Positions 1,391 to 12,390 are shown, numbered from the stretch's first letter. The stretch: 12,394 nucleotides of DNA from Candidatus Mcinerneyibacteriota bacterium (GCA_030630935.1 DAOVMD010000041.1:1-12394), one strand, 5' to 3'. A program made the numbers and translations. Notes: a model not told the origin generated them from the sequence alone.

Positions 1391-1483
1391 GTACTTTTCA
1401 GTATTAGGGAGGGACGGACCTTTCATTTTGTTGCAGTATTATGTTTACTTCAGATGGGAAAATTAAGTTCATTTGGTTAGGGC

Positions 1484-1553
1484 ATGTTTGGTTAACTCCG
1501 TTAACCAAACCGAGAGCAGAGAACTGAGAACAGAGAACAGTTGTTTTATAGAT
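1484..1553. repeat. Composite palindromic repeat, copy A (lacks second hairpin)
   Basis: The element opens with a perfect 11-bp inverted repeat: arms GTTTGGTTAAC (1486-1496) and GTTAACCAAAC (1500-1510) around TCC. A linker CGAGAGCAGAGAACTGAGAA follows, then CAGAGAACAG and TTGTTTTATAGAT. Linker and tail match copies B and D (11855-11936, 12227-12328), but the second hairpin found there is absent. GAACAG joins directly to the tail, as if a deletion had occurred between GAACAG direct repeats. The arms differ from those of copy D at five pairs, and all five are compensated. Confidence 0.8.
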
Positions 1554-1588
1554 TGTAGATAGAGGAAAGGAGTTTATCTTATTATTCC

Positions 1589-1610
1589 AGATCTAGACCT
1601 AGATCTAGAC
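1589..1610. repeat. Short tandem duplication AGATCTAGAC
   Basis: AGATCTAGAC occurs at 1589-1598 and again at 1601-1610, separated by CT, giving a 12-nt period. The unit contains the palindrome AGATCT and overlapping CTAG sites. No role is apparent. Confidence 0.7.
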
Positions 1611-1664
1611 AAAGTATTGTAAGCATTTAGTACAGTCTCGATCTGATATCTCGGTCTTGATACT

Positions 1665-1685
1665 ATTGTTTTCGAAGAAAACAAT
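1665..1685. repeat. Palindrome capped by a C-GAA-G triloop
   Basis: Arms ATTGTTTTC (1665-1673) and GAAAACAAT (1677-1685) pair perfectly around GAA. Read on the minus strand the loop is TTC, matching the C-TNC-G form of the palindromes at 1486-1510 and 12230-12254 but in the opposite orientation. On the minus strand the sequence after it, CCGAGATATCAGATCGAGAC, is loosely like the linker of copy A. ACTATTGTTTTC recurs at 1773-1784, across the 3' end of the lpxL-like gene. Confidence 0.65.
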
Positions 1686-1702
1686 GCCCCTACTGCATTG
1701 TT
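1674..1702 (-). terminator. Candidate operon terminator
   Basis: On the minus strand, about 70 nt past the lpxL-like stop codon, AACAATGC and GCATTGTT form a perfect 8-bp stem (1695-1702 with 1680-1687) around a 7-nt loop. TTCTTC follows, so the 3' arm plus tail reads TTGTTTTCTTC. This has the form of a weak intrinsic terminator. Its 3' arm shares AACAAT with the neighbouring hairpin at 1665-1685, so only one can form at a time. Confidence 0.4.
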
Positions 1703-1773
1703 AATACATAATGCTAATCAATCTTCAATTAATAATTATCAATCATAAATCATAAATGTGTAGCGCAGCGAAA

Positions 1774-2673
1774 CTATTGTTTTCTCCATCGTCGATGCAT
1801 CCATATCCACTGATCGGGATACTTGAATATATACTCACTCACGAGGTCGGAGTATTTTTGTGTATTGAATTTAATTGCTTCATCTTTATCATCCATCTCA
1901 ACGAATTTAAATGGCGGGAAAATATCAATTATAAGTTTTGTTTTATCATTCAGATCCCTGTGATTCAGGATTGGAATTACGGGGACTTTAAACTTTGAAG
2001 CCATTGCCGCGAGAGCATCGAATGTTGATGTTGGTTGTCCCATGAAATTCACAAATATGCTTGCATTTGGAACATATTGATCAATTACAAATCCGACTAA
2101 TTCATTTCTATCTAAAGCTCTTTTTATCCGGAAGATTGATCGTTTATAATATATCGGATTGACCCCGCCCTGCTTTCTAATCTTCATCCAATAATCATTC
2201 ACAAGATTTCCCTGTTTAAATATCTTTGTAATCAGGTTAACTTTAAATCCTGATAACCCGATTGCGGTCGCCATCAGATCCCAGTTGCCAATATGTGCAG
2301 TAAGGATCAAAGCTCTTTTCCCTGAACTCAGACCTTCTTCCAAATATTGTAAATTATTAATTTTAACTTTCTCTGAGATATTACTTTCATTCCACTTATT
2401 CAAGCGCAGGAACTCGGCGAGGTTCATTCCAAATTGCCGATATATTAAATTTGTCATGATTTTAATACGCCAGTCCGGGAAACTATCTCCATAAACTAAC
2501 TTAAAGTTATCATGAATTATCTTTTTCCTTTTACCCTGAGTGAAGGATAAGAATCTAATAAGTCCCCCGAGAAAATTAATTGCAATTCGTTCAGGGAGAA
2601 GATTAATAAAAAAAGATATAAACAGGATTAATCCCAGGTAAATATTATCAAGTATTTTCTCATTTAATTTCAT
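1774..2673 (-). CDS. LpxL/HtrB-family lysophospholipid acyltransferase
   Basis: This is a 299-residue member of the Lip_A_acyltrans (LpxL/HtrB/LpxM) family. These inner-membrane enzymes move an acyl chain from acyl-ACP onto a lipid, classically the secondary acylation of Kdo-lipid A. A hydrophobic anchor covers about residues 10-28. The catalytic HX4D motif is in TAHIGNWDL (H127, D132). Downstream are the family-typical DQYVPNASIFVNFMGQPTST (198-217) and the C-terminal PDQWIWMHRRWRK. Length is close to the ~300-residue norm. ATG overlaps the cinA stop by 4 nt (ATGA) and has no good Shine-Dalgarno, so coupling to cinA is likely. No other lipid A genes are in the window, so the acceptor could be another lipid (ornithine or aminolipid); the gene symbol is left open. 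Confidence 0.88.
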   Translation of the reverse strand: MKLNEKILDNIYLGLILFISFFINLLPERIAINFLGGLIRFLSFTQGKRKKIIHDNFKLVYGDSFPDWRIKIMTNLIYRQFGMNLAEFLRLNKWNESNISEKVKINNLQYLEEGLSSGKRALILTAHIGNWDLMATAIGLSGFKVNLITKIFKQGNLVNDYWMKIRKQGGVNPIYYKRSIFRIKRALDRNELVGFVIDQYVPNASIFVNFMGQPTSTFDALAAMASKFKVPVIPILNHRDLNDKTKLIIDIFPPFKFVEMDDKDEAIKFNTQKYSDLVSEYIFKYPDQWIWMHRRWRKQ

Positions 2674-3914
2674 AATAAATTCAATAAGTATAATCTTAAG
2701 ATATTCAGGGCATGCTGAGATGCCTGTACTTTAATCATTTTTCTAGTCCCATAAAACATAAACTTAAATGACTTCGTAATTTTTTTTGTGTCAATCGCCA
2801 TAAAAACTAACCCGACTGGTTTCTCTTTTGTCCCGCCTGTTGGACCTGCAACCCCTGTGATTGAAATACCGATATCAGCATTTAACAGTTTCCTGACACC
2901 CTTTGCCATTGCAAGTGCAGTTTGACTGCTGACCGCACCAAATTTTAATAAGTTAGCTTTCTTAATTTTCAATAATTTCTCTTTCACTTCACAAGCATAA
3001 CAGACCGTTGCCCCGAGAAAATATTTTGAAGACCCTGACACATTTGTTATTCTGTTCCCTAACATACCACCCGTACATGATTCAGCGAGTGAGATTGTTA
3101 GGTTTTTTTTCAGGAGTAAACCCCCGACTACAGATTCCAGGGTATCTTCATCATACCCGAAGATATTATGTTTAAATATCTTCTCCATCTCAAGTTGGAC
3201 CTTTGAAATTATTTTCTTAACTTCTTTAAGATTCTTTCCACGGGCAGTTAACCTGATTGAAATTTCGGATGGTTTTGCAAGAAGTGCAATTGTAGGATTG
3301 CGATAGCTTTCAAATTGTGCTTTAATCATTTTATTAACTTGTGATTCGGGCAGCCCAATTACTTTTAAAATTCTTGAGAAAATAATTTTCCTCGGTACCT
3401 TAGTTTTCAGAAATTTAAGTACCGATGAATTAAACATCTGAATCATCTCTTCGGGAACTCCCGGTAAGATAATAAATATTTTCTTCCCTTTGTTAACAAT
3501 GAATCCAGGGGCTGTACCGATTTTATTTTTAATTACCACAGCATTTTTCTTAAAGACGAGCGCTTGTTTAATATTTCCTTCGGGCATCTTCACATTAAAC
3601 CGTTTAAATTTATTTTTAATATCCAGAAGAATTTTCTGATTCAGAACCAGGTCATAACCGAGGAACTCTGCGAGTGTTTCTTTTGTAATATCATCAACTG
3701 TCGGTCCAAGCCCGCCTGAGATTATTATCAGATTTGCTCTTGTCGAAGCAATCTTCAATGCAGCTTTTAATCTCTTCATATTATCCCCGGCAACTGTTTT
3801 GTAATAAACATTCACACCTAACATTGCCAGTTTACTTGCGATAAATGAAGAGTTTGTATCATGAATTTGACCAAGTAATAACTCAGTCCCTACTGAGATA
3901 ATTTCCGCTCTCAT
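2670..3914 (-). CDS. cinA: CinA: NMN amidase / COG1058 two-domain protein
   Basis: At 414 residues this has the full two-domain CinA layout. The N-terminal MoCF-type (COG1058) domain covers about 1-170: IISVGTELLLGQIHDTNS at 5-22, GGLGPTVDD at 67-75, and PGVPEEM at 151-157. In studied homologues this domain acts as a pyrophosphatase on ADP-ribose or NMN-adenylate-type substrates. The C-terminal PncC domain (about 255-414) hydrolyses nicotinamide mononucleotide to nicotinate mononucleotide and shows AESCTGG at 277-283 and GVAGPTGGTKEKPVG at 354-368. The usual Y-S-N-E-x-K stretch reads YACEVK (306-311): tyrosine and lysine are kept but Asn becomes Cys. ATG overlaps the pgpA stop (ATGA), with GGAGAAG close upstream. 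In many bacteria recA follows cinA; here an acyltransferase does. Confidence 0.95.
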   Translation of the reverse strand: MRAEIISVGTELLLGQIHDTNSSFIASKLAMLGVNVYYKTVAGDNMKRLKAALKIASTRANLIIISGGLGPTVDDITKETLAEFLGYDLVLNQKILLDIKNKFKRFNVKMPEGNIKQALVFKKNAVVIKNKIGTAPGFIVNKGKKIFIILPGVPEEMIQMFNSSVLKFLKTKVPRKIIFSRILKVIGLPESQVNKMIKAQFESYRNPTIALLAKPSEISIRLTARGKNLKEVKKIISKVQLEMEKIFKHNIFGYDEDTLESVVGGLLLKKNLTISLAESCTGGMLGNRITNVSGSSKYFLGATVCYACEVKEKLLKIKKANLLKFGAVSSQTALAMAKGVRKLLNADIGISITGVAGPTGGTKEKPVGLVFMAIDTKKITKSFKFMFYGTRKMIKVQASQHALNILRLYLLNLL

Positions 3915-4402
3915 ATTACTTCTCCAAACGAAATTAAATAACCAAGCCTAATTAAAACATTCGTCATGACTCCCGCGATAATATCGTCGAGCATGATTCC
4001 TGTTCCGCCATCGAGTCTCTGAACTGAATTAATGAACCATGGCTTTGCCATATCAAGCGCCCTGAAAATCGCAAACGTTCCTAAAAATAATAACCCGATA
4101 TACTTAACTTTTTCAAGTCTCAAAAATGAAAATGCAATGAATATCCCGGCGACTTCATCAATCGTAACTTTACCCGGATCTTTTTTCTGAAAAATTTTTT
4201 CTGCTGCAGTTGAGATTGGAATCCCTATCACTGAGAATATTAGAGCTAAACCCGGGATTATAAAGAAATAACTTGATTTAAAAGAAACAAAAATAAAAAA
4301 TATTAAAATTGTATATACAAAAGTTGTAGTAGTACCCGGGAATACAGGCATATAACCCACAAAGCATGATGTCGATAGTAGTTTAACCATGAAATTCTTC
4401 AT
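3911..4402 (-). CDS. pgpA: Phosphatidylglycerophosphatase A
   Basis: This 163-residue inner-membrane phosphatase removes the phosphate from phosphatidylglycerophosphate to give phosphatidylglycerol. The PgpA hallmarks are present: GYMPVFPGTTTTF near 16-28 (the P-x-A-PGT-type N-terminal motif), DPGKVTIDEVAG at 75-86, FRALDMAKPW at 113-122, and DGGTGIMLDDIIAG at 131-144 with the conserved acidic pair. Three or four hydrophobic segments lie between these motifs. It starts one base after the pgsA stop (TAA-A-ATG) and has little Shine-Dalgarno, so it is probably translated by coupling with pgsA, the gene for the preceding enzyme in the same pathway. Confidence 0.93.
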   Translation of the reverse strand: MKNFMVKLLSTSCFVGYMPVFPGTTTTFVYTILIFFIFVSFKSSYFFIIPGLALIFSVIGIPISTAAEKIFQKKDPGKVTIDEVAGIFIAFSFLRLEKVKYIGLLFLGTFAIFRALDMAKPWFINSVQRLDGGTGIMLDDIIAGVMTNVLIRLGYLISFGEVI

Positions 4403-4403
4403 T

Positions 4404-4967
4404 TTACCAATCTTTTCTTATTACGTGAAAACTTTTAACTAAGTACGCCGTTCCTGAAACTAAAGTTGCAACAGTTGCGATATAAAATAGAATCATTGGG
4501 AACCATAACCAGACTCGCTGAAAGTTAACACTCTCCATTACATCCAGAGCATGAAACCCAATCATGAACCCGATTGCGATCTCCTGTAAAGTTGTTTTGG
4601 TTTTACCGAGAACATCAGACGGGATTGTAACACCTTCCGAAATTGCAATTATTCTCAAGCCTGTAACAATAAATTCTCTTCCAATAATAATCAAAGCAAT
4701 CCAGCCCGGCAGCCATTCAAGCTGAACAAAAGCAATGAGTGCAGCACATAAAATCAATTTATCCGCAAGCGGATCCATAAATAACCCGAACTTTGTAATC
4801 ATATTTTTTGACCTTGCCAGATACCCATCAATAATATCGGTTGCAACTGCAAAGAGAAATAGACCAAGAGCAAACCACAATGAGTATGGAGTAGATAACA
4901 ATATTAGAATAAGGAGGAAAGGAACTAAAAGAATACGAATTACAGTGAGTTTATTAGCGATGTTCAT
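4404..4967 (-). CDS. pgsA: CDP-diacylglycerol-glycerol-3-phosphate phosphatidyltransferase
   Basis: This 187-residue integral membrane enzyme of the CDP-alcohol phosphotransferase family joins CDP-diacylglycerol and glycerol-3-phosphate into phosphatidylglycerophosphate. The full catalytic signature D-x2-D-G-x2-A-R-x8-G-x3-D-x3-D is visible: D44, D47, G48, A51, R52, G61, D65, D69. The N-terminus NIANKLTVIRILLVPFLL is typical of PgsA, as is GREFIVTGLR (96-105). Length matches the family (~180-200). ATG overlaps the rimO stop by 4 nt (ATGA), with a G-rich stretch just upstream. Synthase (pgsA) and phosphatase (pgpA) are consecutive, which strongly supports both calls. Confidence 0.96.
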   Translation of the reverse strand: MNIANKLTVIRILLVPFLLILILLSTPYSLWFALGLFLFAVATDIIDGYLARSKNMITKFGLFMDPLADKLILCAALIAFVQLEWLPGWIALIIIGREFIVTGLRIIAISEGVTIPSDVLGKTKTTLQEIAIGFMIGFHALDVMESVNFQRVWLWFPMILFYIATVATLVSGTAYLVKSFHVIRKDW

Positions 4968-6322
4968 TTTCTAACCCCCACTTCTTTCACAGATATTGAA
5001 ACACCATCTGCATCAGTAACCAAAACCTTAACTAACTCACCGGGATCAAATATTTTATTTGAACTAAAATAAACTTTTAAATCTATATCAGGAGCGTCTG
5101 AACGGGTCCTGGTAATATATCTTTCATTGAACTTATCATCAACCATAACCTCAAGAGTCTTTCCTATTAAAAAAGAATTTTTTGAGTATAACTTTTCTTC
5201 ACAGATCTCCGCTAAGTAATTATATCTCTCTGCAATTATTGAGTCCGGAACTTTATTCTTCAGGTTAAATGCAATGGTACCTTGCTCATCGGAATATTTA
5301 AAAATTCCTACCCTATCAATTTCTGTACTCTTTACAAAATCAACAAGCTCCTGAAAATCCGCATCAGATTCCCCCGGAAACCCGATAATAAATGTCGTTC
5401 TAATTGTGCTGTCAGGTATTAACTCCTTGATTTTATTAAAAAGCCTGGTAATATCTTCAAGGTTTGAAGACCTACGCATTGATTTTAGAATTTTATTTGA
5501 AGCATGTTGTACAGGAATATCGAAATATGGCAGAATTGATTTCGATTTTTTTATTAATGTGATTAACTCATCATCAAATCTATCAGGATTTAAATATAAA
5601 AGCCGAATCCAGGGAATTGATAATTTCAATTTTTCAATCTCGCCAAGTAACTCAGCCAAACCAGCTGCAGGTTTTAAATCCTTCCCATAAAAAGTTGTAT
5701 CCTGCGAAATTAAAATCACTTCTTTTATCCCTAATTTCTCAAGGTTGATCAACTCATTCAAAATAGACTGTACCGGTCTGCTCCGGTATCGACCGCGAAT
5801 AGATGGAATTGTACAGAATGAACAACTATTTGAACAGCCCTCAGAGATTTTCAAGTATGCGATATGCGGATAATTAATAATTATCCTTGGCGTATTCTCA
5901 TCCATTAGATATAATCTTTCTGATTTAACAATACCGACATCATCTGTAAGTGCATCAATAATTTTTTCCGGAGAGTTGACATCTACAAAACAATCGACAT
6001 CGTTAAACTCATCTTTAATTTTATCGAATCCAAAACGTTCAACTAAACAACCAACTACAATAATCTTTTTTATTCTTGATTCCTTTTGATTTTTAATCCG
6101 GTTTAATTTTTTAATTACATCATTACTCTCATCAATTGCATCCTGGATGAATCCGCATGTGTTTACAATGCAATAATCTGCTGTCTCTGGTGTATCAACT
6201 AAATTAAATTTTTCTAATAATAACATGGCAAGCATAACTTCAGAATCAACCTGGTTCTTTGAACAGCCTAAAGTAATGAAATAAATATTTTCATTCGAAA
6301 CAATATCTTTCTTAATAGTCAA
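4964..6322 (-). CDS. rimO: Ribosomal protein uS12 methylthiotransferase RimO
   Basis: This 452-residue radical-SAM enzyme adds a methylthio group to a conserved aspartate of ribosomal protein uS12. The N-terminal UPF0004 domain has TLGCSKNQVDSE (C20) and NTCGF (C56), plus C92, the ligands of the auxiliary 4Fe-4S cluster. LGCSKN distinguishes RimO from MiaB. The radical-SAM motif is EGCSNSCSFC (C163, C167, C170), followed by IPSIRGRYRSRP. A C-terminal TRAM domain covers about 385-450. The start is TTG at 6322: the preceding in-frame codon is TAA, and no ATG, GTG or TTG follows before C20, so TTG is forced. AAGGGG lies about 10 nt upstream, inside the end of the LolA-like gene, with which this gene overlaps by 11 nt. 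Confidence 0.96.
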   Translation of the reverse strand: MTIKKDIVSNENIYFITLGCSKNQVDSEVMLAMLLLEKFNLVDTPETADYCIVNTCGFIQDAIDESNDVIKKLNRIKNQKESRIKKIIVVGCLVERFGFDKIKDEFNDVDCFVDVNSPEKIIDALTDDVGIVKSERLYLMDENTPRIIINYPHIAYLKISEGCSNSCSFCTIPSIRGRYRSRPVQSILNELINLEKLGIKEVILISQDTTFYGKDLKPAAGLAELLGEIEKLKLSIPWIRLLYLNPDRFDDELITLIKKSKSILPYFDIPVQHASNKILKSMRRSSNLEDITRLFNKIKELIPDSTIRTTFIIGFPGESDADFQELVDFVKSTEIDRVGIFKYSDEQGTIAFNLKNKVPDSIIAERYNYLAEICEEKLYSKNSFLIGKTLEVMVDDKFNERYITRTRSDAPDIDLKVYFSSNKIFDPGELVKVLVTDADGVSISVKEVGVRK

Positions 6323-7037
6323 TTATTTCAACCCCTTCAGGAATTTGGAGTTTGAAATATGATTTTTTAAATTCTTTATTTATCGTAACCTCTAAAAGGT
6401 TCAGCTTTAATACCCTGCCGTCCCTGGACCAAAGATAAACCATATTGGGCAGCAGATCAGATTTGTTAATGATGTAAATGATCTTATCAAAATTAATCTT
6501 CGTTTCAATATCCTTCTTAATCTTCAATTCAAGTAAGTAATTAAATTCGTTTTGAGCAACCGTAACATTAAACTTCTCATCAAAATCACCAACCGGTAGA
6601 ATCTCGAATAATGTATTAATATCCTCGGCAGATTCAATCTTCCGCTTATAACAAATTCCATCCTTAACCAAATAAGTTAGAAGAGTTTCTCCGTCACAAA
6701 CAATTATCTGTTTATCGGAGTCAAAGGTTTCAAGTTTAAAAAGTTTCTCTTTTTTAAATGTAAAACTTCCAGTCAGGAAATGAGTTTGGTCAATGAAACT
6801 AAGAAGTATCTCCTCCTCAAATTTACCGGTGATTGACTTCATTGATTTATAGAAATCCTTTATCATCTTAATTATTTCAACTTGCTCCTTTTCTGAAGCA
6901 TCTTTCATATCTTCAACTCTAGTCCTGAAAATACCATCCAGTTTTGGTTTTGGAGATGGTTTTGGTGTATCGCCATTATCTGCGAAAACATTTAGAATTA
7001 AAAAACAGAATAATATTAGAATAATATTTTTTTTCAT
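6312..7037 (-). CDS. LolA-like outer-membrane lipoprotein carrier
   Basis: This 241-residue protein has a signal peptide (KKNIILILFCFLILNVFAD, cleavage near 19-20), a proline/lysine-rich spacer (about 20-35), and a LolA-type domain from about residue 52 on. LolA proteins carry lipoproteins across the periplasm to the outer membrane. Family features seen are an early K/S-I-T-GKFEEE strand (68-76), TGSFTFKKEKLFKLET (89-104), the turn IIVCDGETLLTYL (111-123), and the C-terminal FKLQIPEGVEIID, the usual P-x-GV-x-V/I-I ending. It is longer than E. coli LolA because of the N-terminal extension. Its ATG overlaps the ftsK stop (ATGA), with GAGGT 5 nt upstream. The ftsK-lolA pairing also occurs in E. 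coli and other Gram-negatives, which supports the call. Sequence similarity is weak, so exact lipoprotein specificity is inferred. Confidence 0.82.
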   Translation of the reverse strand: MKKNIILILFCFLILNVFADNGDTPKPSPKPKLDGIFRTRVEDMKDASEKEQVEIIKMIKDFYKSMKSITGKFEEEILLSFIDQTHFLTGSFTFKKEKLFKLETFDSDKQIIVCDGETLLTYLVKDGICYKRKIESAEDINTLFEILPVGDFDEKFNVTVAQNEFNYLLELKIKKDIETKINFDKIIYIINKSDLLPNMVYLWSRDGRVLKLNLLEVTINKEFKKSYFKLQIPEGVEIIDY

Positions 7038-9301
7038 TTTATACCTCGTCTTTCTTTATATTCTTCCCAGGATATTAGGAGTTCCCGGCGATTTTTATCG
7101 TCAAGTGCAGAGATTAAACCTTCTTCTTCCATAACCTCAATTAATCTTGCAGCACGATTATATCCTATCTTAAGCCTGCGCTGTAAAAAGGATGCGGAAG
7201 GTTTTTTATAACTTAAAACAATTTCAATTGCATCAACATATAATTCATCATCGAGTGCTTCCTGCAGACTGAATCTACTGGAAGCATGTTCAATTTTTGC
7301 AAGTTCGAAACTTGCAAAATCCGGTTCACCCTGACCTTGCCAAAAATCAACAATCTTTCGTCTCTCTTTTTCAAATACGAATGCCGACTGAATTCTAATA
7401 GGATAGCCTTGACCGGGTGGTATGTATAACATATCACCTTTCCCGAGTAATTGCTCCGCCCCTTTCATATCAAGGATTGTTCTTGAATCCACTTTTGGAG
7501 CTACCTGGAATGCAACTCTTGCAAGGAGATTCGCTTTTATAACACCTGTTATTACATCTACTGATGGACGTTGAGTTGCAACAATTAAATGTATCCCGAC
7601 CGCGCGCGCAAGCTGTGAAATCCTGGTTATGGATTCCTCAACGTCATTTTTGGAGCTGATCATTAAATCTGCAAGCTCATCGATTATAACAACAATATAC
7701 GGCATGTGCTGGTATAACATCTTCTCCTCAACAGGAGTTTCATCAGTAAATTCCCGCTGTTTCTCAATGACTTTCTGATTGAATATCGTAATGTCCCGTG
7801 TCCCGGCATGCCCTAAACTTCTAAGACGGGAATCCATAATTCTTGTGATCTTCTTCAAAGCTTCAGCGGATTTCTTCGCTTCAACTTGAACCTTCATTAA
7901 TAGATGCGGAAGTTTTCTGTAGATTGAGAATTCAACACGTTTCGGATCAATTAAAACTAACCTGAGGTCATCGGGTGATGAATTATTAATTAAACTTAAA
8001 ATAATATTATTCATGAAAACAGATTTCCCGGACCCTGTAGTTCCTGCAATAAGAAGATGGGGCATCTCTTTTAAATTATCTATGATCGTATTACCCTCAA
8101 TATCTTTTCCTATTGAAATTGTTAAATTAGATTTCTGCTGCGACTCCAGGTACTCGGAAGATGTTATCAATTCCTTAAAATAAACAATTTGAGCTTCCGG
8201 GTTGGGTATTTCAATACCGACTGCGGTCTTACCCGGGATTGGGGCGATTACCCTAATCCTGGTTGCTTTAATTGCATAAGCAATATCATCTGCAAGCTTA
8301 GTAATACTGGATACCTTAATCCCAGGAGCAAGTTTAATTTCAAACCTGGAAATCACCGGACCCTTAACAATGTTTTCTATTCGGGCGGTTACACCAAAGT
8401 CTCTTAAACATTCAAGGAGAAGCTCGCCATTGGCCTTCAAAATATTAGTTAATTCACGACTCTGAGCTTTCTGGGGAATTTCATAAATATTTAAACCGGG
8501 AAGCTTATAATTCTTCTGTGAATCAGGTGGAGTAAATGTAACCTTAATCGGTTTCTCTTTTTTCTCTTGAACATTCTTCCTGGCTGGGGGTTCTTTAATA
8601 TCCTTTGTTGAACCCGATACTTTAATTTGGTCTGGCTTGGTTTCCTTCTTGAATTTTTCCTGCTTCTTTGCAAGGCGCTCACGAAACTTCTCTCGCTCCT
8701 TAATCTTATCTTCCTGTTTCCTTTTATCTTTTATTAACTTCTTCTCCTTTGAAGTTTCTCTTCTTTGAATCCAGAAATCCCGGAGCTTCATCAGGATCTT
8801 AGAGAAAACAATCTCTGTACTGATTATTACTGAAACGATAATTAGAAGAATAATTACCAGGTATGCTCCTAATATCCCGAAGATCTCAAAGAACTTCTGT
8901 GAAATGAATTTACCCAATAGACCAACTCTATTATAATACTCAGGGTGAGACCAAACTTTGTAATAAATCCCTAATAATGAAGATACCGAAATTAGAGTAA
9001 TCAAAAATGAAACCAATTGAAGCCAGAACTTTTTAATTGCTCTTTTAAAAAACTTATATACACCAAGATAAATTAATATTGCAGGAATCAGATAAGTTGA
9101 CCAGCCAATAAACCAGATTAGGCTGCTGGCGATTACCTTCCCTGCTTTGCCTACGATGTTCTGAATATCTCTCTCAGGATCATAAGTCACCAGAGTAATC
9201 AACATGAATATCCCTAAAAATATTAGAATTATTCCGATAAGTTCATTAAACTGCTCCTGACTAACAATCCTTTTTCCTTTCTCAGACTTATTATTCTTCA
9301 T
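7034..9301 (-). CDS. ftsK: DNA translocase FtsK
   Basis: This 755-residue septal DNA pump moves chromosome ends apart at division and promotes dimer resolution. Four membrane segments lie at about 21-40, 55-80, 93-112 and 138-162. A short, lysine/glutamate-rich linker (about 180-260) follows, far shorter than in E. coli FtsK and closer to SpoIIIE/short FtsK forms. The alpha/beta motor starts near 265; Walker A is GTTGSGKS (420-427), Walker B VVIIDELADL (537-546), and ATQRPSVDVITG lies at 575-586. The C-terminal gamma winged-helix domain (SFLQRRLKIGYNRAARLIE, 704-722) is the one that reads polar chromosome sequences (KOPS/SRS). No XerC/D gene or dif-like site is apparent in the window. ATG overlaps the uppP stop (ATGA). 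Confidence 0.97.
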   Translation of the reverse strand: MKNNKSEKGKRIVSQEQFNELIGIILIFLGIFMLITLVTYDPERDIQNIVGKAGKVIASSLIWFIGWSTYLIPAILIYLGVYKFFKRAIKKFWLQLVSFLITLISVSSLLGIYYKVWSHPEYYNRVGLLGKFISQKFFEIFGILGAYLVIILLIIVSVIISTEIVFSKILMKLRDFWIQRRETSKEKKLIKDKRKQEDKIKEREKFRERLAKKQEKFKKETKPDQIKVSGSTKDIKEPPARKNVQEKKEKPIKVTFTPPDSQKNYKLPGLNIYEIPQKAQSRELTNILKANGELLLECLRDFGVTARIENIVKGPVISRFEIKLAPGIKVSSITKLADDIAYAIKATRIRVIAPIPGKTAVGIEIPNPEAQIVYFKELITSSEYLESQQKSNLTISIGKDIEGNTIIDNLKEMPHLLIAGTTGSGKSVFMNNIILSLINNSSPDDLRLVLIDPKRVEFSIYRKLPHLLMKVQVEAKKSAEALKKITRIMDSRLRSLGHAGTRDITIFNQKVIEKQREFTDETPVEEKMLYQHMPYIVVIIDELADLMISSKNDVEESITRISQLARAVGIHLIVATQRPSVDVITGVIKANLLARVAFQVAPKVDSRTILDMKGAEQLLGKGDMLYIPPGQGYPIRIQSAFVFEKERRKIVDFWQGQGEPDFASFELAKIEHASSRFSLQEALDDELYVDAIEIVLSYKKPSASFLQRRLKIGYNRAARLIEVMEEEGLISALDDKNRRELLISWEEYKERRGIK

Positions 9302-10131
9302 AATCCAACTATACTTAAAATTATTAATAAAAAACCAAAACCAAAACAGTAATAGGAGAAGATATTTAATTTATTTTTCTTTACAACTTTTGAAAGTAAG
9401 GATACACCTACAAACCCTGCTGCAACACCGGCTGCCATCCCAGTTAAGAATATCCAAACTGCTTCATTTGTTATTTCCTGAAAATTTATATCCAGAACTG
9501 TTAATAAAGTAGCTCCTGCAATTGCGGGTATCGATAATAGAAATGAGAACTCGAATGCTTCAGTTTTATCTAAGCCCCTGAGTAAACCACCCGAGATTGT
9601 GGAGCCCGAACGCGAAATCCCCGGGATAACCGCAAAACCCTGGATCACACCAATTATAATTGCATCAAGCAAATTAAGCTTTCTATATGAATCCTGTGTC
9701 TTCCGTAAATATGGCAGCAGCATCAAACCTCCTGTTACTAATAGAAATAGCCCGATATAAATTATTCTGTTGAAAATAACTTCTTCAATGAACTCTTTAA
9801 TCATCAGCCCGATTATTGCAGTTGGTATCGACCCTATTATAATAAATAGAATCTTGTTAAACGACTCTTTATCTTCTGAGGATTTAGTTCTTTTAAAAAT
9901 AAACCTGGTAGAAATAATTAATTTTAAAAGTTGTTTCCTGAAAAAAACTATTATTACAATCAAAGTCGCGAAATGAAGAGCAACATCGAAAGAAAGACTA
10001 TATTTCTGAAAGAATAATAAATCTTTAAATAATAAATTTTGTAAAGCAGCCAGATGACCCGAGGAACTAACCGGTAAGAACTCAGTTAGCCCCTGGATTA
10101 CACCTAAGAAAACAGCAATTAAAATTAACAT
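9298..10131 (-). CDS. uppP: Undecaprenyl-diphosphatase (BacA/UppP family)
   Basis: This 277-residue polytopic inner-membrane phosphatase converts undecaprenyl diphosphate to the monophosphate, recycling the lipid carrier for peptidoglycan and O-antigen-type glycans. Overproduction in other bacteria gives bacitracin resistance. Both family signatures are intact. The first is QGLTEFLPVSSSGH (13-26) with Q13/E17 in the E/QxxxE position and H26. The second is VIQGFAVIPGISRSGST (162-178) with PGxSRSG and R174. About eight hydrophobic segments are present and length is typical (~270). It starts 9 nt after the TPR gene's stop codon and lacks a clear Shine-Dalgarno, so coupling or a leader-independent mode is possible. 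Confidence 0.97.
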   Translation of the reverse strand: MLILIAVFLGVIQGLTEFLPVSSSGHLAALQNLLFKDLLFFQKYSLSFDVALHFATLIVIIVFFRKQLLKLIISTRFIFKRTKSSEDKESFNKILFIIIGSIPTAIIGLMIKEFIEEVIFNRIIYIGLFLLVTGGLMLLPYLRKTQDSYRKLNLLDAIIIGVIQGFAVIPGISRSGSTISGGLLRGLDKTEAFEFSFLLSIPAIAGATLLTVLDINFQEITNEAVWIFLTGMAAGVAAGFVGVSLLSKVVKKNKLNIFSYYCFGFGFLLIILSIVGL

Positions 10132-10140
10132 TACATAAAT

Positions 10141-11625
10141 TTATAGTGACTTTAAAGTTTGGTCAATTTGCTTAATACGTTTATCAATTGCCTCATTTTG
10201 TGAGGTAGAGGTCGCATAAGTTTTCGCCTTTTCAAGACTCTCTTTACCCTTCTTTAAAATCTCCTTAGCTTCAGCAGGTTGTGTAGATTTCATTTTAAGA
10301 CCCAAGATAAAACGAGTATAACCAAGGTTATAATAAACCTGGAAACCATATTTTGATGGAACCTTCATCCCAGAAGCTTTAGTAAAATTCTCTTCCGCAT
10401 TCTTAAAATCCTTTTTACTGAAATAAGCATTTCCCAAATCCATATATACATAAAAATCTGCAGCACCCGCTGCAATTACTTTTTCATATAATATTATAGC
10501 TTCATCAAAATTACCTGAGGTCAATGCATCTGCAGCTTCTTGAATGAGAGCATCAGTTTGCCCCGAGGAACCTGAGGTTATTTTTGAATAATAACTTTTT
10601 GATTTTAAATGATATTCTTGTGCAAGGGAGCTGTCCCCATTGGCCTTGGCTTCTCTCTCTAATCCCTGATAACTCTTTGCTGCACCTTCGTATGCTTTCT
10701 GGAGAAGATCTTCTTTTGGTTTTGGAGTTGAATTAATAATCCTTTCAAAAATCTCAGCTGATTTTTTGTATTTCTTATTATTCAAAAACCTGACACCTAT
10801 CTGCTCTAATCTGTCATTATCAATGTCCTCAGATAAAACTTGGTCATAGATTATCAGGGCAGCATCAAAATCATTACTATCTTCAAGAATACCAGCTTTT
10901 AAAATTTTCAATTCCAAGATATCATTTGGTTTTGCGGTTGCAATCGCTTCGTCAATTGCCTTTAAAGCAGCCTTTGTGTCACCCTTATATTTATATAAGG
11001 CAGCAATCCTGGTTTGGGTCAAACCCTCGATTTTGTATTTTAAGGCTTTCAATTCATAATCAATTGCCTTATCTAAATATTGTGAATCCTTTTTCTCCGA
11101 TTCGTTATATTTTGCCTCATAAATAAGACTGAGGCTATGATATATATATGGGGTCACATGCTCGGTACCACGGTCTTTGGGAATTGCAAATATCTTGTTA
11201 AAAGTACTTATAGCAAGATCCCATTTCTGCTGTCTCTGGTAAATCGTAGCAAGACGGAAATAAACATGAGAACTCCTATTCCTCTTCATATATTTCTTCG
11301 TGAACTCTTCTGCGGTATCATAATCATTCATAAGCATATAGATATCGGTAAGCTTAGTAAATGCTTCCATATAGCCGGGATCTAAATCTAAAACTTTCTT
11401 GTAATAATTAATAGCTTCTTTTAACTCTATTGCTGCCGCATCTTCTTTTTCCTTGATCTTTGCAGGATCAGTTAAATACATTGTCTCGTTTAGAATTTCC
11501 ATACCCTTTCTATGGTGTTTATCTGCTTTCTTTAACATCTTTGCGGATAATTCACCTAATGAAAAAACATTAACCGTGAATAACGTAATGAGTAAAATGG
11601 AAATTAATAAGGTTCTATTTCGCAT
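10141..11625 (-). CDS. Secreted tetratricopeptide-repeat protein
   Basis: A 494-residue protein with a signal peptide (about 1-22, MRNRTLLISILLITLFTVNV then FS) and no lipobox cysteine, so it is probably periplasmic. The mature part is almost all helical TPR-like repeats: clear units at about 64-97, 119-148, 204-237, 240-263, 269-300, 357-389, 391-420 and 428-460, with the usual A-x-Y/F...A and D/N-P spacing. A lysine-rich helix closes the protein. No catalytic domain is seen. TPR arrays bind other proteins. The position between a ribosomal protein and envelope genes suggests an envelope-assembly scaffold, but that is inference. The start is well supported: AAGGAGG (11631-11637) stands 5 nt before ATG, 34 nt past the bS22-like stop. 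Confidence 0.9.
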   Translation of the reverse strand: MRNRTLLISILLITLFTVNVFSLGELSAKMLKKADKHHRKGMEILNETMYLTDPAKIKEKEDAAAIELKEAINYYKKVLDLDPGYMEAFTKLTDIYMLMNDYDTAEEFTKKYMKRNRSSHVYFRLATIYQRQQKWDLAISTFNKIFAIPKDRGTEHVTPYIYHSLSLIYEAKYNESEKKDSQYLDKAIDYELKALKYKIEGLTQTRIAALYKYKGDTKAALKAIDEAIATAKPNDILELKILKAGILEDSNDFDAALIIYDQVLSEDIDNDRLEQIGVRFLNNKKYKKSAEIFERIINSTPKPKEDLLQKAYEGAAKSYQGLEREAKANGDSSLAQEYHLKSKSYYSKITSGSSGQTDALIQEAADALTSGNFDEAIILYEKVIAAGAADFYVYMDLGNAYFSKKDFKNAEENFTKASGMKVPSKYGFQVYYNLGYTRFILGLKMKSTQPAEAKEILKKGKESLEKAKTYATSTSQNEAIDKRIKQIDQTLKSL

Positions 11626-11659
11626 TTCTTCCTCCTTATAGACTAGAATTACTTAAATG

Positions 11660-11752
11660 TTATTTTTTCTTTTTATGTCTATTAGCTCTTCTTCTCTTTT
11701 TCCGTTTATGCTTTTTTACTTTCATTAACTTTCTTTTTCTTCCTGATGGCAT
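11660..11752 (-). CDS. bS22/mS38-like small ribosomal protein (AURKAIP1/COX24 domain)
   Basis: A 30-residue, extremely basic protein, short enough to be missed by most gene callers. It begins MPSGRKRKLMKV and ends KKHKRKKRRRANRHKKKK. This matches the AURKAIP1/COX24 domain proteins known from Bacteroidota (MPSGKKRK...KNRHKKKK type), the mycobacterial bS22 protein and the C-terminus of mitochondrial mS38. In solved ribosomes these bind 16S rRNA of the small subunit near the decoding region. (Not to be confused with E. coli Sra, once called S22.) It is preceded by a near-perfect extended Shine-Dalgarno and a strong promoter, and is the first gene of the ten-gene operon. The SD, promoter and family match together make a chance ORF unlikely. 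Confidence 0.85.
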   Translation of the reverse strand: MPSGRKRKLMKVKKHKRKKRRRANRHKKKK

Positions 11753-11756
11753 TAAG

Positions 11757-11770
11757 TAATCACCTCCTTT
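11757..11770 (-). promoter_or_regulatory. Extended Shine-Dalgarno of the bS22-like gene
   Basis: AAAGGAGGTGATTA on the minus strand is complementary to nearly the whole single-stranded 3' tail of bacterial 16S rRNA. It ends 4 nt before ATG, leaving 10 nt between GGAGG and the start codon. It is much longer than any other ribosome binding site in the window and implies very strong initiation. Confidence 0.85.
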
Positions 11771-11791
11771 ATTGTGATTTAAAATCCATTT

Positions 11792-11820
11792 ATTATATCA
11801 TATAATATTAGGTAATTCAA
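11792..11820 (-). promoter_or_regulatory. Strong sigma70-type promoter of the ten-gene operon
   Basis: On the minus strand -35 TTGAAT (11815-11820) and -10 TATAAT (11792-11797) are separated by exactly 17 nt. The -10 is a perfect consensus, and the -35 matches TTGACA at four of six positions. Transcription should begin near 11785, giving a leader of about 33 nt before the bS22-like ATG. No riboswitch or operator fits in so short a leader. Confidence 0.75.
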
Positions 11821-11854
11821 GTAAAAAGTTAGTAATAATATATTATATAGATAT

Positions 11855-11936
11855 CAGAGAGCAGAGAACAGAGAGCAGACCCAGAACCACGCACTTCGTT
11901 AGGGTATCTGGGCTCCGGAACAGTCGTTTTATAGAT
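11855..11936. repeat. Composite palindromic repeat, copy B (second hairpin only)
   Basis: It begins with the linker CAGAGAGCAGAGAACAGAGA and continues into a hairpin at 11880-11912: CCCAGA pairs with TCTGGG and ACC with GGT, with one bulged A. The hairpin is capped by ACGCACTTCGT. It ends GGAACAGTCGTTTTATAGAT, shared almost exactly with the tail of copy A. The first hairpin of copies A and D is missing. Confidence 0.75.
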
Positions 11937-11941
11937 AGCAT

Positions 11942-12020
11942 ACAGCTGCGCTGTCGAGAACAAAGAACATACCCTGAACCACGCGCTTCGTTAGGGTTCT
12001 GGGCGTCGGAACAGTCGTTT
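11942..12020. repeat. Composite palindromic repeat, copy C
   Basis: A short first hairpin has arms ACAGC (11942-11946) and GCTGT (11950-11954) around TGC. The linker CGAGAACAAAGAACATA follows. The second hairpin (11972-12003) pairs CCCTGAACC with GGTTCTGGG with one T-T mismatch, and its loop contains CGCTTCGTTA. The tail CGGAACAGTCGTTT matches copy B. B and C lie nearly head to tail in the same orientation. Confidence 0.75.
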
Positions 12021-12090
12021 CTCAGAGAACTGATATGATGCAATATTTGCTGCTCTATCAAATATAACGATTTTGGCGGGGTTTTATTTC

Positions 12091-12215
12091 AAGAACTAAA
12101 GAACTAAAGAGTTAAAGTGTTCAATAGTTAAAATGTTAATAAATGCGTTTAAATGTTTAATCAGTTACAATAGTTCAATGGTTTAAGAGTTAATAAAACC
12201 GTTAAAGTGTTATTG
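12091..12215. repeat. Degenerate A/T-rich tandem repeat
   Basis: Imperfect repetitions of units such as GTTAAAGTGTT, GTTAAAATGTT, GTTTAAATGTTT and AGTTCAATGGTTT run for about 125 nt, preceded by two copies of AAGAACTA. There is no constant period, which suggests an old slipped-strand array. No reading frame of interest was found. Confidence 0.6.
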
Positions 12216-12226
12216 TAGAGACGTGC

Positions 12227-12328
12227 CATGTTCAAGCAACTCCGTTGCTTGAACAGAGAGCAGATAGCTGAGAACAGACCCTGTACCACTGCTTTCGCTT
12301 GGGTGCAGGGCGCGGAAACAATCGTTTT
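12227..12328. repeat. Composite palindromic repeat, copy D (most complete)
   Basis: This copy has all parts. First, an 11-bp perfect palindrome: GTTCAAGCAAC (12230-12240) and GTTGCTTGAAC (12244-12254) around TCC. Then the linker AGAGAGCAGATAGCTGAGAA, and a second hairpin (12279-12310) pairing CCCTGTACC with GGTGCAGGG with one G-U. Its minus-strand cap is GCGAAAGC. The tail is CGGAAACAATCGTTTT. Comparison with copy A shows the same flanks but arms changed at five compensated pairs. Confidence 0.8.
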
Positions 12329-12341
12329 GAAGATTAAAGTC

Positions 12342-12390
12342 CTGCGACAAGCGTAGCGCAGACGTCCCGTATGTCCATAGGACATCGGGA
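12342..12390. repeat. Pair of hairpins at the right edge
   Basis: CTGCG (12342-12346) pairs with CGCAG (12357-12361). Directly after it, TCCCG plus ATGTCC (12365-12369, 12371-12376) pair with GGACAT plus CGGGA (12380-12390), with one bulged T and the loop ATA. That gives 11 bp and the most GC-rich stem here. The element may continue past the window. If a gene lay further left on the plus strand this could serve as a terminator, but none does. Confidence 0.6.

What the first reader, a model, noticed from the sequence alone, without database searches (positions are those of the whole stretch)
1486..12254. Palindromes with freely changing arms but an invariant C-GNA-G cap, on both sides of the operon
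Four perfect inverted repeats share one design: 1486-1510, 1665-1685, 11942-11954 and 12230-12254. Read on the appropriate strand, each loop is GNA (GGA, GAA, GCA, GGA) closed by a C-G pair. The arms are otherwise different yet always pair perfectly; copies A and D differ at five stem pairs, all compensated. d(GCGAAGC)-type GNA triloops and d(GCGAAAGC) are known as unusually stable DNA mini-hairpins, and the second hairpin of copy D contains exactly GCGAAAGC on the minus strand. This suggests selection for a single-stranded DNA hairpin. Possible explanations are recognition by a REP-type/HUH transposase or another ssDNA-binding factor, or arms kept symmetrical by quasipalindrome templated repair. 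The seven-base core AACTCCGTT is the common island in A and D.
Basis: partly seen in the sequence, partly recalled or inferred. Interest (0 to 1): 0.72.

Follow-up and report, generated by a model that had tools for sequence, protein, structure and literature searches.

The report
Mosaic repeat with self-matching hairpin heads
Three of the four palindromes are the hairpin "heads" of a short repeat scattered about 200 times through this one bacterium's genome; their arms do change in matched pairs, most likely because DNA copying keeps re-matching the two arms, so this is a new family of a familiar kind of bacterial repeat rather than a new machine.

Summary
The palindromes are real, but the description needs correcting. 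Three of them (1486-1510, 11942-11954, 12230-12254) are heads of one dispersed mosaic repeat: variable hairpin head, an array of 7-nt units, an optional second hairpin, and a constant tail AACAGTYGTTTTATAGAT. The tail occurs 197 times in this genome (reversed control 2) and only at chance level in 97 other genomes, including the one same-family genome. The fourth palindrome (1665-1685) belongs to something else. Arms co-vary beyond shuffles. The cap is not an invariant C-GNA-G: the commonest loop is TCT/AGA and the consensus is C-RNA-G, a cap that is also in excess in unrelated bacteria. About ten heads carry the loop inverted against the constant tail, including two neighbouring copies with identical stems and downstream flanks. 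Arm homogenisation plus spacer inversion is the published signature of template switching at inverted repeats. The units lie in all orientations to genes, none of their modules lies near the genome's three Y1 transposase genes, and they lack the GTAG/CGTC tag at the head. Verdict: a new species-restricted REP/BIME-like mosaic family, with arm symmetry maintained mainly by template-switch correction (inferred). Spread by a Y1 transposase is possible but unsupported.

The parts
1486..1510 (+). Copy A: hairpin head, GGTTAAC class, loop TCC (tail strand)
   Evidence: same head class at 95 sites in the genome with up to 1 mismatch
1511..1535 (+). Copy A: 7-nt array (GAGAGCA GAGAACT GAGAACA ...)
   Evidence: sequence; head-to-tail distance 36 nt as in 39 of 57 copies
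1536..1553 (+). Copy A: constant tail AACAGTTGTTTTATAGAT
   Evidence: 197 copies in the genome
1665..1685 (.). Second palindrome of the finding; not part of the repeat unit. Next to GCCCCTACTG (minus strand CAGTAGGGGC), so possibly a piece of a GTAG-type repeat
   Evidence: four loose relatives, one with the same GCCCCTAC flank
11855..11936 (+). Headless copy: 7-nt array, second hairpin 11880-11912, tail 11919-11936
11942..11954 (+). Third palindrome: head of the CAGC class, loop TGC
   Evidence: about a dozen heads of this class precede the same array
11955..12021 (+). Rest of the third copy: short array, second hairpin 11972-12003 (one unmatched pair), tail 12010-12021
12229..12255 (+). Copy D: hairpin head, CAAGCAAC class, loop TCC, 12-bp arms
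   Evidence: 120 sites in the genome with up to 2 mismatches
12256..12334 (+). Rest of copy D: array, second hairpin 12279-12310 (contains GCTTTCGC 12291-12298), tail 12317-12334

Best explanation
The window holds four copies of a species-restricted, dispersed, mosaic intergenic repeat of about 65-110 bp: hairpin head, 7-nt array, optional second hairpin, constant tail. Shown: the modules, the copy number, the co-variation of the arms, loops inverted against the tail, and no orientation to genes. Inferred: arm symmetry is maintained mainly by replication template switching inside the hairpin. One arm is copied from the other, so a mutation in one arm is passed to its partner, and some switches flip the loop. 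Short purine...A loops closed by C-G would favour this because they make stable DNA turns. How the unit spread is unresolved: duplication of composites, or mobilisation in trans.
For: Tail 84+113 hits vs 0+2 control in this genome, chance level in 97 others; head classes 120 and 95 sites. Head-to-tail spacing in steps of 7. Pairing 339/351 and 291/330 against shuffle maxima 327 and 279, with half-changed intermediates. About ten heads with the loop inverted relative to array and tail; two copies in L095 (4277-4305, 4521-4551) with identical stems and identical downstream flank have loops TTC and GGA. Template switching is reported to homogenise inverted-repeat arms and invert spacers, including ttc/gaa spacers between perfect arms (PMC8604942); see also PMC8794818 (abstract only). 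Orientation to genes 17/18/18/12, so no RNA-sense role is needed.
Against: No strain comparison was possible, so no single template-switch event was seen in a lineage. Inner AAC/GTT is practically invariant, which hints at sequence recognition. The outer arms of the commonest head type (TTCTCAAGC...GCTTGAACA) stay unmatched. Inverted loops could also come from recombination between oppositely oriented palindromes.
Confidence: 0.6

Rival explanations
1. The unit is a non-autonomous mobile element whose head is recognised as a single-stranded DNA hairpin by a Y1 (HUH) transposase of the RAYT or IS200 kind; recognition selects for pairing and for the cap.
For: Three Y1 genes in the genome; GTAG stands exactly 1 nt after the tail in 23 of 111 copies (expected 0.16); high copy number confined to one species.
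Against: None of the modules lies at the Y1 loci held; no GTAG or other constant tetranucleotide at the foot of the head; arms vary widely; the cap preference is not specific to this genome.
Confidence: 0.15
2. The heads work in RNA, as transcription terminators or mRNA-protecting hairpins, and selection keeps them paired.
For: Intergenic position of most copies (9 of about 110 overlap a predicted frame); REPs of other bacteria are thought to act in RNA (PMC3733652).
Against: No bias of the unit towards either gene strand or gene ends; no run of T after the head; half-changed pairs on the tail strand are A-C 7 and G-T 2, so no excess of G-U there. A symmetrical hairpin could still act in either direction.
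Confidence: 0.1
3. There is no ongoing correction: a few ancestral heads were copied many times, and A and D simply carry different heads.
For: Much of the A/D difference is between two head classes shared by dozens of copies; related copies are not independent, so shuffles overstate significance.
Against: Double changes at several positions inside each class, with intermediates, and inverted loops.
Confidence: 0.12

Closest known systems
GTAG- and CGTC-tagged REPs (Di Nocera et al. 2013, PMC3733652)
   Same: Short intergenic palindromes in high copy, restricted to one or few species, with subfamilies that differ by complementary stem changes and with very short loops.
   Different: No GTAG or CGTC tag at the foot of the head; the palindrome is only one module of a unit with a 7-nt array and a constant tail.
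Bacterial interspersed mosaic elements (BIMEs), from general knowledge
   Same: Composite intergenic units made of palindromes joined to other recurring motifs, in variable combinations.
   Different: Not built from alternating inverted copies of one REP; modules and sequences are unrelated to the enterobacterial ones.
Template-switch correction of quasipalindromes (PMC8604942; PMC8794818; PMC7202029)
   Same: Arms made identical and spacers inverted between perfect arms.
   Different: Here inferred from about 100 paralogous copies in one genome, not from comparison of strains.

Membership tests
GTAG/CGTC-tagged REP | Palindrome of 20-40 bp in high copy between genes | tested here: met
GTAG/CGTC-tagged REP | Unpaired GTAG or CGTC motif at one end of the palindrome | tested here: not met
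   Flanks of the heads show none; GTAG follows the tail in 30 of 111 copies, not the head
RAYT-mobilised REP (REPtron/REPIN) | The repeat flanks a Y1 transposase gene of the same genome | tested here: not met
   Head, array and tail patterns absent from the three Y1 loci held; the genome is 80% complete, so another gene may be missing
MITE | Terminal inverted repeats at the two ends of the unit | tested here: not met
   Head and tail are not inverted copies of each other
MITE | Target-site duplication, empty sites | not testable with these tools
   No genome of the same genus is held
BIME-like mosaic repeat | Recurring palindromic and other modules joined in variable combinations between genes | tested here: met
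   Head classes, with or without second hairpin, headless and tandem forms, more than one 3' end
Template-switch signature | Homogenised arms | tested here: met
Template-switch signature | Inverted spacers between otherwise equal arms | tested here: met
   events not polarised in a lineage
Invariant C-GNA-G cap | All loops GNA on one strand | tested here: not met

The most novel reading that the evidence does not exclude
The C-RNA-G capped head is a single-stranded DNA recognition hairpin for an enzyme that tolerates almost any outer arm sequence as long as it pairs, so the repeat is mobilised or processed by shape rather than by sequence.
Probability: 0.1. Interest if true: 0.65.

Novelty: new member of a known kind. 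Interest (0 to 1): 0.3.

Why it matters
It gives a natural set of about 100 related short palindromes in one genome whose constant, asymmetric flanks reveal loop flips, so it could be used to measure how often template switching re-matches hairpin arms in bacteria. It also shows that compensated arm changes alone do not prove selection for a hairpin. If the heads were recognised by shape, that would be a new targeting principle, but nothing here requires it.

Tried and rejected
Rfam: no match in the window. Tandem Repeats Finder: nothing. Naming the organism through RimO: only 36-43% identical hits in many phyla, so the phylum was not determined. The whole genome was not available as a file; 892 kb in 121 contigs was analysed instead, 40 contigs taken blind and the others chosen mostly because they carry copies, so copy densities from that set are biased; genome-wide counts come from the pattern searches. 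The proposed C-TNC-G control was dropped because it is the same palindrome read on the other strand. Y1 genes as source of the unit: modules absent. Terminator reading: disfavoured by orientation. A literature search for a matching mosaic repeat with 7-nt units found nothing.

Full report
Observation. The four palindromes exist as written. Arms of 9 or more with a 3-nt loop are far above chance in the window (4 vs 0.15; arms of 11 or more, 3 vs 0), but the 5-bp arm of 11942-11954 is not (31 such sites, 21.8 expected). A fifth long palindrome, 7295-7319 inside the FtsK gene, has a T-CGA-A cap and does not fit the design.

What they are. Reading outward from the palindromes showed a shared unit: head hairpin, degenerate 7-nt array (such as CAGAGAA CAGATAT CAGAGAA CCGAGAG), then AACAGTYGTTTTATAGAT. 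In the genome of the window (G000, 3.16 Mb in 471 contigs, 80% complete) the tail pattern with up to 2 mismatches occurs 84+113 times against 0+2 for the reversed pattern; 97 other genomes, including the one of the same family, have at most 5. The CAAGCAAC head occurs at 120 sites and the GGTTAAC head at 95; the same-family genome has 0 and 1, and the other genomes searched have 0-4. Many copies carry a second hairpin before the tail, CCCAGAACCACGCACTTCGTTAGGGTATCTGGG or CCCTGTACCACTGCTTCGCTTGGGTGCAGGG. The A-T/T-A swap between these is itself compensated, and the window copy at 11972-12003 is an intermediate. The distance from head loop to tail is 36 nt in 39 of 57 copies scored as lacking the second hairpin, and otherwise mostly 22-23, 29-30, 43, 50 or 57, that is, steps of 7. 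Units can be tandem, as at 11855-12021 in the window and in L102. The window therefore holds copy A (1486-1553), a headless copy (11855-11936), a copy headed by the third palindrome (11942-12021) and copy D (12229-12334). The palindrome 1665-1685 has no such neighbours.

The cap. In 99 collected heads, a few of them doubtful, the loops on the tail strand are TCT 31, TCC 18, TTC 14, TTT 12, AAA 9 and rarer ones. On the other strand that is mostly R-N-A, with ANA commoner than GNA, so an invariant GNA is wrong. Outside the head classes, palindromes with 7-bp arms, a C-G closing pair and a purine...A loop are still in excess when each inner arm is counted once (loop 3: 20 vs 4.2 simulated; loop 4: 15 vs 4.0), while other caps are near expectation. 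Some of those arms are related variants (for example TATCCC, TGTCCC and AGTCCC with GTA), so the votes are not fully independent. The same cap class is also in excess in 271 kb of mixed named bacteria (9 vs 1.2 and 8 vs 1.8), although other caps exceed expectation there too for loop 3. The cap is thus a common feature of short bacterial palindromes and no sign of a special machine here. That GNA and GNNA loops form stable DNA turns through a G-A pair is my own knowledge; the literature search gave no paper I could use for it.

The arms. Within the CAAGCAAC class 339 of 351 inner pairs are paired against a shuffle maximum of 327; within the GGTTAAC class 291 of 330 against 279. Double changes occur at several positions, with half-changed forms such as TCAAGAAAC...GTTGCTTGA between TCAAGCAAC...GTTGCTTGA and TCAAGAAAC...GTTTCTTGA. 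The inner AAC/GTT hardly ever changes. Related copies are not independent, so the shuffles overstate significance, but the number of distinct double changes makes chance implausible.

Mechanism. Two processes can keep arms matched: selection for a hairpin, and template switching, in which one arm is copied from the other. The second also predicts inverted loops. Because array and tail give each head a direction, inversion can be seen: about 10 heads carry RNA instead of TNY on the tail strand. The clearest case is L095, where copies at 4277-4305 and 4521-4551 share the stem and the downstream flank letter for letter but have loops TTC and GGA; all three bases differ, which an inversion of TCC plus one transition explains. 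Published work describes exactly this pair of signatures, arm homogenisation and spacer inversion, in inverted repeats with arms over 9 bp, with ttc to gaa among the cases (PMC8604942). Selection in RNA is disfavoured by the lack of orientation to genes (17 and 18 co-directional, 18 convergent, 12 divergent, close to the share of intergenic space; gene calls were a simple longest-frame rule) and by no excess of G-U half-changes on the tail strand (small numbers). Selection on single-stranded DNA is not excluded.

Mobility. The genome has three Y1 genes: one nearest IS200/IS605, and two nearest REP-associated tyrosine transposases but below NCBI's cut-off. None of the modules lies in those loci. 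GTAG stands exactly 1 nt after the tail in 23 of 111 copies and 4 nt after it in 7 (expected 0.16 each), partly because ordinary one-sided GTAG repeats (GTAGAGACGTGCCATGGCACGTCTC, 25 sites) follow it. I cannot explain this adjacency. Without close relatives no empty site was available, so how the unit spread is open.

Comparison. Di Nocera et al. report that most GTAG families contain subfamilies with alternative complementary stem residues (PMC3733652), so arms that change in matched pairs are already known for REPs. What differs here is the missing tag at the head, the 7-nt array, the constant tail and the visible loop flips. I call it a new, species-restricted family of REP/BIME-like mosaic repeats.

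Noticed in passing
window 1411-1451: Matches the 3' end of the REP-associated transposase element on contig C338 (L113, minus strand): a solo end without the gene, 35 bp upstream of copy A. Nine more solo copies in the contigs held; such transposase-linked terminal repeats are described in PMC3733652.
   Followed up: partly
tails genome-wide, e.g. L137, L163, L173: GTAG stands exactly 1 nt (23 of 111) or 4 nt (7 of 111) after the constant tail, far above chance; unexplained.
   Followed up: partly
window 12363-12390: CGTCCCGTATGTCCATAGGACATCGGGA: a palindrome preceded by CGTC, looks like a CGTC-tagged REP; the stretch before it (AAGTCCTGCGACAAGCGTAGCGCAGACGTCCCG) follows the tail in several other copies.
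   Followed up: partly
window 12215-12229: GTAGAGACGTGCCAT: half of the genome's GTAG palindrome (25 full sites), directly joined to head D.
   Followed up: partly
window 7295-7319: Perfect 11-bp palindrome TTTTGCAAGTTCGAAACTTGCAAAA inside the FtsK coding sequence.
   Followed up: no
window 12090-12212: Degenerate AT-rich stretch of GTTAAA/GTTCAA-like units of irregular length, seen beside many other repeats of this genome.
   Followed up: no
L112, 500-1200: The IS200-like Y1 gene lies inside an array of short repeats (GCTCCGTAGGAGCGATATCTTTGTAG-like) that run into its 3' coding end.
   Followed up: no
heads without the usual tail, e.g. L101, L189, L087: A second 3' end, roughly GAACAGAAAAATRAAA, follows the array in several copies.
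   Followed up: no
window 11661-11755, minus strand: Tiny very basic reading frame (MPSGRKRKLMKVKKHKRKKRRRANRHKKK...) with a good ribosome site; read by eye only, resembles short basic AURKAIP1/COX24-type proteins.
   Followed up: no
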